Shown one piece after another: positions 49,513 through 60,623 of a stretch of 64,000 bases of DNA. Every line of letters begins with the position of its first letter. The first letter of the stretch is position 1. The position numbers and the translations under genes were made by a program. The DNA comes from Leptospiraceae bacterium (GTDB taxonomy: Bacteria > Spirochaetota > Leptospiria > Leptospirales > Leptonemataceae), in contig JANXCF010000002.1 of NCBI GenBank assembly GCA_025059995.1, positions 186,001-250,000 of the forward strand. The letters are read 5' to 3'. The notes below the pieces were generated by a model, which ran no database searches, was not told the DNA's origin, and saw nothing but the letters and a program-made list of their open reading frames with translations.

Positions 49513-50856
49513 ATGACTGACATTTTTATTCTTATTTTACTTACACTTTTGAATGGTTTTTTCTCAGCTTCAGAGATAGCTTTAATTACAATAAAAAAAA
49601 GTAGAGTTAAATCTTTAATTGAGAACAAAGTCAAGGGAGCTGAAATCATTAGACAATTACAAAATGATCCCAATCGTTTGTTTGCTACTATTCAGATTGG
49701 GGTCACGTTAGTTGGAACCATTGCCTCCGTCTTTGGCGGAGTAAAGGTAGTAGAGCAAATCTCTCAATTATTACAAAATTTGCCAATACCTAATTCGCTT
49801 CTTCCTTTCGTAGATGCGATTTCTTTTGCAATTGTTGTTTTATTTATTACGTATCTGCAAATTGTTCTCGGGGAGTTGGTGCCAAAGTCCTTGGCTTTGA
49901 ATCATTCGGAGCGAGTAGCTCTTATTTTGGCTTATCCGATTTCTTTTTTTAACAGTTTATTTTATTATCTAAGCCAAATTTTGATAAGTTCTAGTAATTT
50001 CATTTTGAAGCCTTTTAAAGATAAAACAAGCTTCTCTGAAACTAAACTTTTAGCTGAGGAAATACTTCACTTGCTTGAAGAAGGAGTGAAGAAAGGCACA
50101 ATTGAAACCAACGAGCATGAGATGATTGAGAACATTTTTGAAATCAATGAAACTGATGCAAGAGAAGTGATGGTGCCAAGAGTGGATATGGTGGCATTAC
50201 CAGTAAACGCTAAGAGGGAAGAATTAATTAAAGTATTAGAAACAATGTATAGTAGGATACCTGTATATAAAGAAAACTTAGATAATATCGTTGGCATATT
50301 ACATATCAAAGATCTTTTGCGGGCGTTTTGGAAAAAGAACTTAGAACTTAGTGATGAAGAAATAGCTATTTCGAAGATCATGCGTCCACCCTTCTTTGTC
50401 CCAGAGGGTATGAAAATAGGCAAAATCTTGCAAGAAATGCAAAAACGAAAAATTCAAATAGCTATCGTTGTTGATGAATACGGCGGAACTGCTGGACTTT
50501 TAACATTAGAAGATATTCTTGAAGAAATCGTAGGTGAGATTCAAGATGTAAGTGAAGGAAAAGAATCAGAAAATCAAATTTTAAAAATAGATGATAATAC
50601 CTTCTTAGTGAATGGAAGTTGTAACATTTTTGATTTCAATGAGTTCATTAGCGAAGATGTGATACCGGAATCAGAAGCTTATACAACAGTGGCGGGTTTT
50701 ATTATAGAGCAATTAGGAAGATTTCCAGAGATTGATGAAGCTTTTGAATACAAGAATTTAAAGTTTATAATAATGAAGAAAGAAAAACATAAAATCATTC
50801 AACTACGTGTAGAAAAACACAAAAAAGAAGTAATCCCACATAAAGTGAAAGTTTAA
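49513..50856 (+). CDS. CorC/HlyC (DUF21 + CBS pair) membrane protein
   Basis: 447 residues. A DUF21 domain with three to four helices starts at LLTLLNGFFSASEIALI; the CBS pair follows (MVPRVDMVALPVN, IAIVVDEYGGTAGLLTLEDILEEIVGEIQDV), and a C-terminal CorC_HlyC domain with NGSCNIFDFNEFI. Such proteins are linked to Mg2+/Co2+ efflux, and in spirochaetes are often called hemolysin C without proof. Confidence 0.9.
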   Translation: MTDIFILILLTLLNGFFSASEIALITIKKSRVKSLIENKVKGAEIIRQLQNDPNRLFATIQIGVTLVGTIASVFGGVKVVEQISQLLQNLPIPNSLLPFVDAISFAIVVLFITYLQIVLGELVPKSLALNHSERVALILAYPISFFNSLFYYLSQILISSSNFILKPFKDKTSFSETKLLAEEILHLLEEGVKKGTIETNEHEMIENIFEINETDAREVMVPRVDMVALPVNAKREELIKVLETMYSRIPVYKENLDNIVGILHIKDLLRAFWKKNLELSDEEIAISKIMRPPFFVPEGMKIGKILQEMQKRKIQIAIVVDEYGGTAGLLTLEDILEEIVGEIQDVSEGKESENQILKIDDNTFLVNGSCNIFDFNEFISEDVIPESEAYTTVAGFIIEQLGRFPEIDEAFEYKNLKFIIMKKEKHKIIQLRVEKHKKEVIPHKVKV

Positions 50857-56746: not shown

Positions 56747-57979
56747 TCACATGTTATCAATCAAAGCATTTCCGAATTCAGAAGTTCGAACTTCTTTGGC
56801 ACCTTCCATCAATCTTGCGAAGTCATAAGTGACGATTTTCTTTGAAATGGTTCTATCCATAGCTTCAATGATTTTGTCGGCGGCTTCATTCCAACCCATA
56901 TATCTTAACATCATCTCTCCTGAGAGTATCACAGAACTTGGATTTACTTTGTCTAAACCAGCATACTTAGGTGCAGTTCCATGAGTTGCTTCGAAAATGG
57001 CATGACCCGTTTCGTAATTGATGTTTCCACCTGGAGCGATTCCTATGCCTCCCACTTGAGCAGCTAAGGCGTCAGAAATATAATCACCATTGAGGTTCAT
57101 GGTGGCAATTACGTCATAGTCTGTTGGACGTGTTAGTATTTGTTGAAGAAAGGCATCTGCGATTGCATCTTTTATAACGATTTCTCTTCCATTGACTTTA
57201 AGTACTTGCCATGGACCCCCGTCAAGATCGATAGAACCCATTGATTTTGAAAGTTCATATCCCCAATCTCGAAATGCCCCTTCCGTAAACTTCATGATGT
57301 TTCCTTTGTGGACTAAAGTCACGCTTTTTCGGTTATTCTTGATGGCATAGTCAATGGCGGCTTTGATCAATCGATAAGAACCTTCTTTACTGATTGGTTT
57401 GATACCAATACCAGATGTTTCAGGAAATCGAATTTTTTTGTAGTACTGAGGAAAATGTTCTTTTAATAATTCTAAAAACTTTTTATTTTCTTCTGTTCCT
57501 GCTTTGAATTCTATTCCCGCATAGATGTCTTCTGTGTTTTCACGAAAAATTACCATATCGACTTGTTCAGGGTGCTTAACAGGGCTTGGCACTCCTTTAA
57601 ACCATCGAACTGGACGTAAACAAACATATAAATCCAATTCTTGTCGTAGAGCTACATTTAACGAACGAATCCCCGTTCCAACGGGAGTGGTCAGAGGTCC
57701 TTTGATACCTACTAAGTATTCACGAAACGTATCTATGGTTTCTTGAGGTAGCCAATCATTAAATTTTTGGAATGCCTTCTCTCCTGCATAGACTTCTTTC
57801 CACTGAATTTTTCGTTTGTTTCCATAAGCTTTTTCTACTGCGGCATCAATCACTCTGACGGCTGCCGCCCAAATGTCAGGACCTGTCCCATCACCTTCAA
57901 TGTAGGGAATAATAGGGAAATCTGGAACCTTTAATTGACCATTTTCTATTCGAATTTTTTCTGCATTTATGACTGTCAT
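56747..57979 (-). CDS. icd: NADP-dependent isocitrate dehydrogenase
   Basis: 410 residues of the E. coli-type IDH. It has [12 protein letters not shown], the phospho-site-type loop [22 protein letters not shown] with Ser (regulatory Ser in E. coli), [16 protein letters not shown], and [32 protein letters not shown]. Makes 2-oxoglutarate and NADPH. NADP preference is inferred from this subfamily. Confidence 0.93.
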
Positions 57980-58093
57980 ATTTCCAATACATTCAGAAAA
58001 AATGAAAAGTCAAGAAACATAAGATGAAAATCATCAATTTCATGAAAATTATAACATGACAAAAAAATACGTTTAGTAAGAAATTAAACCGCA

Positions 58094-58951
58094 TTATTTA
58101 AGTGTAAGCATAATTTTCTGTCTGCTTTTGATATAGTTGAGTTTTGCCGTATCATCATTATCCAAACCCTGTGGAATCTTTCATTACTATGTAGCGTTCT
58201 TTATATAATATACTCATTCTATAGGCTAAGCTGGATGGTATGCCTGATCTTTCTATAGGTTGGTTTTCGGTTGTTGAAAGGAACATTGGGGGAATTGCCA
58301 ACTTAGCATAAAATTCTTTATCAATCAGAAGAGAAAAGTTACCGCAAAACCAAAATTTTCTTACTCCTCTTCCCTTAATAAAGTGCTTAAGAGATATAAG
58401 CATAACATTTAAGATTTTCCCATACAATAGGAATAGTCAAGTTAGTAGGGCTTAAAAATCTCTATTATGAAGCAAAGAGTTTATATCTCTAAAAGTATGA
58501 AAATAAAGTCCTAAGCTTGATATTCCCTTTTTTGGATACTTGTGAATCATTCCGTCCGTAGTTTGAATTTCTTTTAACATAAAACTTATGCTGGAAAACA
58601 AAAATTCAAACTCAAAGGGGGGTCCAATCATTATAAGGGGGATTACCTACTATTGTTAAAAAATCATCACTTAGATGTTATACTTTTCGCGTTATTAATG
58701 CATTTGTGTAAAAAACCCTTTCTGGAGAATAATTTCTTTTCAAGTATTCTACCGCTACAGAATCAATGTTGGCTAATCGAAAGTTCAAATCTTATAAATG
58801 CCCCGTATCCACCTTCAGGATCTATAACAACAGTATTAGCGCTGAAAAAAGGGAAAAGCAGTTCTTTAGCTTTTTCTACAATAACTGAAGGAGTATAAAA
58901 AGACCCTAACTTTATTCTTTCTTTTCTTATTAGATGTTTTGCTACTAACAT
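58094..58951 (-). pseudogene. Relic of an N6-adenine DNA methyltransferase (Eco57I/type II restriction-modification kind)
   Basis: Reading the minus strand from 58951: RKERIKLGSFYTPSVIVEKA, then DPEGGYGAF (motif I, normally DPxxGxGxF), a frame change, NIDSVAVEYLKRNY, then a stop codon and IVGNPPYND (motif IV, NPPY) further on. More frame changes and stops follow. A fragment near 58158-58427 (KFWFCGNFSLLIDKEFY, STTENQPIERSGIP) and a tail ending DDTAKLNYIKSRQKIMLTL at about 58094 fit the C-terminal end. At least three frame breaks show it is dead. Related restriction enzyme genes are not seen. Confidence 0.72.
58560..58612. repeat. 11-bp inverted repeat inside the methyltransferase relic
   Basis: AGTTTGAATTT (58560-58570) and AAATTCAAACT (58602-58612) are exact inverted copies, 31 bases apart, with a smaller CATAA/TTATG stem in between. 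It lies after the NPPY region where the reading frame is lost. It may be a small inserted hairpin element; no second copy is seen here. Confidence 0.5.
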
Positions 58952-58977
58952 TACAAAACAAAAAGTTTAAAGTTTAA

Positions 58978-59036
58978 GGATTAGTACATACCTTAGCTTG
59001 TAAAGGTATAACTCTAAACCACTGAACCACAGGAGT
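58978..59036 (-). pseudogene. Truncated tRNA-Val-like sequence
   Basis: On the minus strand an acceptor-like ACTCCTG is followed by TG, a D-arm GTTCAGTGGTTTAGAGT, and an anticodon stem ATACC/GGTAT whose loop TTTACAAGCTAA holds TAC in the usual setting of tRNA-Val. The loop is too long by five bases, and no T-arm or matching 3' acceptor follows. I take it as a broken relic, at modest confidence. Confidence 0.4.
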
Positions 59037-59393
59037 ACACTGTTAATCGGTATTTGTCAATATTTCTTCGAGAATGTGATTAGGTGGTAAACATGATAAG
59101 CATGTGGCAACAGAAATAGTGTAGAAAAACCAGAAAAACTTGACTTCAAAAAGTCTATCAAGTTCCACAAGATAAACATTATCATCACAAAAAAGCTTAA
59201 CATGTTTATATCTTCATTCTGTTTTTATTACCCAACGTAATATAATATATACAAAGAAATTACGGGTTATTGTGTTATCTTTAAAAAATCAAAAAACTAA
59301 AACAACAGGTTATGGTTTAAAAATTAATTTCAAAATAACTGAATCACATTTTTTTTCATTGAAGTTAAAAGGATATTTAGTTTATTTGATATT
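59037..59393. other. AT-rich stretch without genes upstream of the acyl-CoA dehydrogenase
   Basis: About 357 bases with many stops in all frames. I see no gene, RNA or mobile element in it. The promoter for the acyl-CoA dehydrogenase gene should lie here (e.g. around the AT-rich ATAATATATACA at about 59240). Confidence 0.55.
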
Positions 59394-60623
59394 ATGGCAG
59401 TAAGTAATCAACTATTATCGAAAGAAGCAAAGATACCAGAACTTTCAATTCCAATTCAGTTTTCAGAGGATTTGATAGCACTTCGTGATTTAGTTCGGGA
59501 GATTGTGAGGGAAGTTGTCATTCCTGCTAGAAAGGAATTAGATGAAAAAAACGAATATCCGTGGAAAGTTTTAGAAAAGTTTCGAGAAGCAGGACTTTTT
59601 CAAGCGATGTTTGATGAAGAATATGGTGGAATGGGGTTGGGAATGATGGCGAACATAATCTTAGCAGAAGAAATAGCTTATGGATGCTTGGGGATCGGAA
59701 CTTCGTTTTTAGCTACCAAATTAGGAGCTCTTCCAATTGAAGTTGGAGGGACGGAAGAGCAAAAGAAAAAATGGCTTCCGAGGATTGCCTCAGGTGAGTT
59801 GATTGCAGCTTTTGGCTTGACCGAACCAAATGCAGGTTCAGATGTGCCAGCACTTCAAACCACTGCGGTAAAAAAAGGTGATAAGTATATCCTTAATGGA
59901 ACGAAGCAATGGATATCAGGTGCTGGGCAAGCTCATGTCTATACTGTTTTTGCCATCACAGATAAAAGTCGAGGACCACGTGGTATAAGCTGCTTCATTG
60001 TGGAAAAAGGAACTCCTGGATTTAGTTTCGGTAAAAAAGAAGACAAATTGGGAATACGTGCTTCGGAGACGAGACAGTTAATCTTCGAGGATTGTGAAAT
60101 TCCTGCCGAAAATTTAGTAGGAGGAAAAGAAAACAACGGTTTTGTTCAAGCACTAAAGACTTTGAATCTTTCACGTCCAGCTGTTGCTGCTTCAGCTGTG
60201 GGGTTAGCTCAAGGAGCATTTGATGCAGCTATGCAATATGCACGAGAAAGAGAGCAGTTTGGAGTAAAAATTGTGACATTTCAAGCAATTCAACATATGT
60301 TAGCAGAAATGGCTATGAAGATCGAAGCAGCAAGGTTGTTAACATACAAGGCAGCTATTTTGGCAGAGCAAGGACACAAAGAGACAGCGAAATTCTCTGC
60401 TATGGCGAAGTGTTATGCAGCGGATATAGCAATGGAAGTTGCAACGAACGCAGTCCAAATCTTTGGTGGCTATGGATATGTGAAAGATTATCCAGTTGAG
60501 AAGTATTTCCGAGATGCAAAGATTTTACAGATTTACGAGGGAACCAGTCAAATCCAAAAAAACGAAATTGCAGCAGGACTCATCAAAGAGGCAGCATCAA
60601 AGAAAGTGATCCTCAATATGTAA
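59394..60623 (+). CDS. Acyl-CoA dehydrogenase
   Basis: 409 residues of the FAD-dependent family. GLTEPNAGSDVPALQTTA is the FAD/substrate segment, AREREQFGVKI and IQIFGGYGYVKDYPVEKYFRDAK-type residues follow, and Glu382 in IYEGTSQIQ is the catalytic base of the short/medium-chain type. Oxidises acyl-CoA in beta-oxidation; exact chain length unknown. A strong terminator-like hairpin follows the stop. Confidence 0.93.
   Translation: MAVSNQLLSKEAKIPELSIPIQFSEDLIALRDLVREIVREVVIPARKELDEKNEYPWKVLEKFREAGLFQAMFDEEYGGMGLGMMANIILAEEIAYGCLGIGTSFLATKLGALPIEVGGTEEQKKKWLPRIASGELIAAFGLTEPNAGSDVPALQTTAVKKGDKYILNGTKQWISGAGQAHVYTVFAITDKSRGPRGISCFIVEKGTPGFSFGKKEDKLGIRASETRQLIFEDCEIPAENLVGGKENNGFVQALKTLNLSRPAVAASAVGLAQGAFDAAMQYAREREQFGVKIVTFQAIQHMLAEMAMKIEAARLLTYKAAILAEQGHKETAKFSAMAKCYAADIAMEVATNAVQIFGGYGYVKDYPVEKYFRDAKILQIYEGTSQIQKNEIAAGLIKEAASKKVILNM

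What the first reader, a model, noticed from the sequence alone, without database searches (positions are those of the whole stretch)
58094..58951. Dead N6-adenine DNA methyltransferase in the window's only gene desert
Motif I (DPEGGYGAF) and motif IV (NPPYND) are both readable, but broken by frame changes and stops. It records a lost restriction-modification system, and a tRNA-like relic lies beside it, so the site may be an old integration point.
Basis: partly seen in the sequence, partly recalled or inferred. Interest (0 to 1): 0.5.

Follow-up and report, generated by a model that had tools for sequence, protein, structure and literature searches.

The report
Dead M.PabI-like DNA methyltransferase gene
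A spirochaete genome carries the wreck of a DNA-protecting enzyme gene, probably from a lost anti-virus system, and the short sequence GTAC that such systems attack is still unusually rare in this genome.

Summary
Window 58314-58951 (minus strand) is a broken adenine DNA methyltransferase in the window's longest gene-free gap (57980-59393, 1414 bp). Intact relatives place it beside the bacterial M.PabI-like methyltransferases. In three of nine full-length relatives an R.PabI-type restriction DNA glycosylase gene follows directly. The relic has a frame change, in-frame stops and a gap of about 105 codons after motif IV; in what survives, 35 of 40 residues invariant in nine intact relatives are kept. 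No restriction gene was found in the desert or in the 95.8%-complete genome; one weak hit lies antisense to another frame.

New evidence: GTAC, the known PabI-family target, stands at 0.20 of expectation in 364 kb of this genome, against 0.65-0.73 in its three congeners, where neither gene was found. This fits a GTAC system that acted in this lineage and died fairly recently; another GTAC system is not excluded. The tRNA relic is not above chance. Gene order breaks here, but breaks often in this genus. A known kind of decay, with a genome-wide footprint.

The parts
57980..59393 (.). Gene desert between icd (56747-57979, -) and an acyl-CoA dehydrogenase gene (59394-60623, +); no ORF over 89 aa
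58790..58951 (-). Relic fragment 1: N-terminus and motif I (DPEGGYGAF at 58796-58822); open frame
58621..58782 (-). Relic fragment 2, in another frame: motif IV NPPYND (58627-58644); in-frame TAA at 58678-58680
58616..58621 (-). Junction where about 105 codons present in relatives are missing, including the invariant HPLSYLIK segment
58314..58616 (-). Relic fragment 3: C-terminal region (HKYP, TFRDINSL) with in-frame stops, the first at 58452-58454
58158..58313 (-). Possible tail of the relic: open frame continues but has no convincing match to relatives
58965..59045 (-).

Best explanation
The stretch is the pseudogene of an m6A DNA methyltransferase of the bacterial M.PabI-like kind. Its job was to methylate GTAC sites and so shield the chromosome from a partner R.PabI-type restriction DNA glycosylase, which removes adenine from unmethylated GTAC. 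This lineage acquired the pair after it split from its sampled congeners and kept it long enough to lose most GTAC sites. The restriction gene then disappeared, and the methyltransferase, no longer needed, decayed by frame change, stops and a large internal deletion. Shown: homology, lesions, absence of the partner from the assembly, GTAC depletion in this genome and not to that degree in its congeners. Inferred: GTAC specificity of this copy, former presence of the partner, order of loss, recency.
For: tblastn matches of six intact methyltransferases in collinear fragments, best E 1.3e-14, 0 of 500 shuffles as good. R.PabI-family gene directly downstream in three of nine full-length relatives. 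GTAC at 0.20 of expectation (131 of 642) in 364 kb against 0.65, 0.73 and 0.65 in three congeners; 15 of 15 segments of 20 kb at 0.12-0.31, 44 of 44 congener segments at 0.44-0.89. Neither gene found in the congeners. In the same genome CGCG is also short (0.45 against 0.87-2.27) and an intact ThaI-family pair is present, so depletion tracks the restriction genes there (ThaI cutting CGCG is recalled). 35 of 40 invariant residues kept, which fits recent death.
Against: No trace of an R.PabI gene remains, so its former presence is inferred. Five of nine full-length relatives have no R.PabI gene alongside. The genome has several other methyltransferases of unknown specificity, one of which could target GTAC. 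GGCC is depleted even more (0.11) without a C5 methyltransferase hit, so depletion need not have a visible cause. GTAC is mildly low in the congeners too (rank 3-4 of 16 palindromes). M.PabI and M.HpyAXII themselves were not compared.
Confidence: 0.6

Rival explanations
1. The relic was a solitary methyltransferase, or was paired with another kind of nuclease, and the GTAC depletion comes from a different system, resident or on mobile elements.
For: Five of nine full-length relatives have no R.PabI gene alongside; in G163 the methyltransferase is followed by ORFs matching NucS_C weakly and REase-ARP strongly. The genome has other N6/N4 methyltransferase genes of unknown target.
Against: The nine intact relatives include three with R.PabI, and the depleted site is exactly the published PabI-family target (PMC10273834, passages). 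None of the nine own-genome proteins scanned by Pfam was assigned to a family I know to act on GTAC (my recall).
Confidence: 0.3
2. Old integration point: a mobile element entered at a tRNA gene and decayed, leaving the methyltransferase and a tRNA remnant.
For: The stretch 58965-59045 (minus) resembles a D-arm and anticodon arm by eye. The desert lies where gene order differs from G002 and G003.
Against: tRNA likeness is not above chance (176 of 1318 controls). The longest direct repeat in 57900-59450 is 18 nt at 83%. icd has different upstream neighbours in G000, G001 and G002/G003, so breaks are common here.
Confidence: 0.04
3. Assembly or sequencing error in an intact methyltransferase gene.
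For: Draft genome of 17 contigs; reads were not available.
Against: About 105 codons are missing besides a frame change and several stops, while ORFs of at least 90 aa cover 94% of the window.
Confidence: 0.03

Closest known systems
Bacterial M.PabI homologs (M.HpyAXII type), methyltransferases paired with R.PabI-family genes
   Same: Collinear sequence match to methyltransferases that sit upstream of R.PabI-family genes, motif I before NPPY; pairing and gene order as published (PMC4615327, section 5)
   Different: Dead; a stretch of about 105 codons missing; no R gene beside it or found elsewhere in the assembly
Decayed PabI systems of Helicobacter (H. pylori, H. macacae, H. muridarum)
   Same: Broken members of the same kind of system, in genomes short of GTAC (PMC4615327 section 5 and passages; PMC10273834 passages)
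   Different: There the R gene is reported to be disrupted more often than M; here R is gone and M is dead too; the host is a spirochaete
PabI homologs of Brachyspira
   Same: Same phylum-level group, listed as carriers (PMC4615327, section 5 and passages)
   Different: R.PabI homologs are reported there; here only a methyltransferase relic remains

Membership tests
Bacterial M.PabI-like methyltransferase | Sequence homology to methyltransferases paired with R.PabI genes | tested here: met
   (queries include the C. coli, G175 and G089 proteins); shuffle control
Bacterial M.PabI-like methyltransferase | Motif I before motif IV with the specificity region C-terminal (gamma type, PMC4615327) | tested here: met
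   Order of fragments
Bacterial M.PabI-like methyltransferase | Direct match to M.PabI or M.HpyAXII | not tested
   Those sequences were not fetched
Bacterial M.PabI-like methyltransferase | Intact open frame with all conserved segments | tested here: not met
   Frame change, stops, 29 of 69 invariant columns missing; hence filed as a pseudogene, not a working member
Bacterial M.PabI-like methyltransferase | Methylates GTAC | not testable with these tools
   Needs a methylome or enzyme assay
PabI restriction-modification system | R.PabI-family gene downstream on the same strand, or anywhere in the genome | tested here: not met
   desert; genome: one match below cut-off, antisense to another frame
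PabI restriction-modification system | GTAC depletion of the host genome (common but not universal) | tested here: met
tRNA gene remnant | tRNA sequence or structure score above chance | tested here: not met

The most novel reading that the evidence does not exclude
A PabI-type restriction DNA glycosylase system lived in this spirochaete lineage after it split from its congeners, removed roughly 70% of the GTAC sites they still have relative to expectation, and then died. Its footprint has outlived it, so the genome is a 'ghost' of a lost restriction system whose remaining depletion and relic decay could serve as two independent clocks.
Probability: 0.5. Interest if true: 0.45.

Novelty: new member of a known kind. 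Interest (0 to 1): 0.3.

Why it matters
Restriction systems come and go, but their loss is seldom seen together with an independent sign that they once worked. Here a dead methyltransferase of a family with a known target sits in the one genome of four congeners that is strongly short of that target. More genomes of the group could show how fast such a footprint fades after loss. It also extends the range of the family within the spirochaetes.

Tried and rejected
tRNA relic: rejected. R.PabI relic elsewhere: PF09522 gave one weak match at G000:C10:15881-16201 (E 2.8e-4, below cut-off, three stops); it is antisense to an open frame of 156 codons that reads as a peroxiredoxin (my reading, no HMM call), so rejected. 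Second copy of the desert in the genome: none. Viral contigs: 23 pattern matches, none confirmed. Phages: 1 weak record at E up to 1 and 3 records with the G175 protein, none covering 80% of the query. Plasmids: none at E 1e-5 with the 261-aa read-through; at E up to 10 with 215 aa, 24 records, of which 14 (Campylobacter) cover 99% at 32% identity, E 4e-4. Solved structures: best match a rRNA methyltransferase, E 0.001. Pfam and NCBIfam on relic pieces: nothing above cut-off. Insertion-type repeats: nothing convincing. In one search I used a wrong frame for fragment 2; those counts are discarded and replaced. Papers: five searches, aimed at footprints of lost systems, the six listings showed no direct precedent; this is weak evidence and no claim that none is in print.

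Full report
What is there. On the minus strand, from 58951 down to 58314, three collinear fragments in changing frames match intact DNA methyltransferases of other genomes. Fragment 1 (58790-58951) holds motif I, fragment 2 (58621-58782) holds NPPYND and an in-frame TAA, fragment 3 (58314-58616) holds the C-terminal region and further stops. Between fragments 2 and 3 about 105 codons of the relatives are missing, with the invariant HPLSYLIK segment; 29 of the 69 columns invariant in nine relatives are lost there. In the surviving parts 35 of 40 invariant residues remain. For scale, when each intact relative is left out in turn, it keeps between 40 of 54 (Oligoflexia) and 40 of 40 of the columns invariant in the other eight. 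So the gene died mainly by frame damage and deletion with little substitution, which suggests recent death (inference). Motif names are recalled.

Chance. Six query methyltransferases score 55.5 bits at best against the desert; the best of 500 dinucleotide shuffles is 31.6 bits. The desert is 1414 bp; the next longest gap is 316, 410 or 1198 bp with ORF cut-offs of 90, 120 or 150 aa.

Organism. The genome (G000: 2.38 Mb, 17 contigs, 95.8% complete) has two FlaA-family matches above cut-off, and none of 14 control genomes has any. That FlaA marks spirochaetes is recalled. Genus and species are not known to me.

Relatives. With the relic as query, 0 of 60 other genomes matched in the nearer sample, three congeners included, and 8 of 295 others in a phylum sample. 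A profile of six intact relatives (four from this phylum, matched by construction) gave seven matches below E 1e-150 among 392 genomes: G163, G175, G089, G078, G357, G372, G334; fragments in G294 and G340; and, apart from those and the relic, only weaker matches, E 8e-12 or worse, in the rest of the 164 genomes with any match. In the congeners these weak matches reach 4.6e-7 (G003), 1.5e-6 (G002) and 7.1e-4 (G001), those of G003 and G002 in frames of 521 and 608 codons. One named relative came from the genome collection, an Oligoflexia MAG, and 14 Campylobacter plasmid records carry one.

Partner. Of nine full-length relatives inspected, three have an R.PabI-family gene directly downstream: G175 and the C. 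coli plasmid (PF09522), and G089, where the contig ends inside the reading frame and the PF09522 domain lies at the end of another contig (that the two are one gene is inference). Five have none alongside (G163, G078, Oligoflexia, G357, G372), judged from ORF positions; for G334 the contig ends 339 bp after the gene. In the PF09522 search 2 of 296 genomes were over the cut-off, G089 and G175; G163 and G078 were probably in that draw but are not listed by name, and G357, G372, G334 and Oligoflexia were not searched with it. In G163 the following ORFs match NucS_C weakly and REase-ARP strongly. In the window's genome the only PF09522 match is below cut-off and antisense to another frame.

Known biology. 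R.PabI-family enzymes excise adenine at unmethylated GTAC; M.PabI and M.HpyAXII methylate GTAC; GTAC is rare in Helicobacter and Campylobacter but not in Pyrococcus abyssi (PMC10273834, passages). Bacterial M genes lie upstream of R in the same direction, R is disrupted more often than M, and Brachyspira is a listed carrier (PMC4615327, abstract, section 5 and passages). Other papers were seen as listings only.

Footprint test. Expected counts come from tri- and dinucleotide counts. In 364 kb of G000 (300 kb of contig 1 plus the window) GTAC is 131 against 642 expected, 0.20, second lowest of 16 palindromic and of all 256 tetramers. Congeners: G001 348 of 536 (0.65), G002 309 of 425 (0.73), G003 341 of 524 (0.65), from 300, 300 and 280 kb; GTAC ranks 3rd or 4th lowest of the 16 there, so a mild shortage is general. 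Per 20-kb segment, 15 of 15 in G000 lie at 0.12-0.31 and 44 of 44 in congeners at 0.44-0.89. In 20 further genomes of the family and order, one stretch each, the 16 with 20 or more expected sites range 0.39-1.10; the four with 5-13 expected range 0.20-0.57 and say little. Four genomes with a family methyltransferase show 0.02 (G078, where GATC and GGCC are also absent), 0.24, 0.35 and 0.50, without a congener baseline. CGCG is short as well (0.45 against 0.87-2.27), and an intact ThaI-family gene with a methyltransferase is present. Against a simple reading, GGCC is the most depleted (0.11 against 0.44-0.68) although no C5 methyltransferase was found, and CTAG is low in all four genomes (0.14-0.55).

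Site. In G002 and G003 the acyl-CoA dehydrogenase gene lies beside the homologue of window 49513-50856, 70-90 bp away, while icd lies on another contig with homologues of genes between 51684 and 56750. So the window joins blocks that are apart in those genomes and the relic lies at the joint. Restriction genes at rearrangement joints are a published pattern (PMC10273834, passages). But icd's upstream neighbour differs among G000, G001 and G002/G003, so a break here is not special.

Conclusion. A dead M.PabI-like methyltransferase, most likely the last piece of a GTAC restriction-modification system that acted in this lineage. The kind is known; its combination with a lineage-specific footprint is the interesting part.

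Noticed in passing
whole genome G000, 364 kb sampled (window included): GGCC is at 0.11 of expectation (28 of 246) against 0.44-0.68 in the congeners, yet no C5 methyltransferase (PF00145) was found in the genome: possibly another lost or unrecognised restriction system.
   Followed up: partly
L215:4714-6284 (G000:C4): Intact ThaI-family restriction gene (PF15514, E 2e-63) followed by an N6/N4 methyltransferase gene; CGCG is depleted in this genome only among the four congeners.
   Followed up: partly
L216:3876-9343 (G000:C1) and L217:4768-7120 (G000:C11): Two more methyltransferase genes with matches split over frames by stops, the first beside a long intact frame of 970 aa: other restriction systems may be decaying too.
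   Followed up: no
L028:5442-9157 (G163): A full-length relative of the relic's methyltransferase is followed by ORFs matching NucS_C weakly and REase-ARP strongly, perhaps a different nuclease partner.
   Followed up: no
window 58984 and 59035: The desert holds 2 of the window's 27 GTAC sites; too few to tell whether depletion has relaxed there.
   Followed up: no
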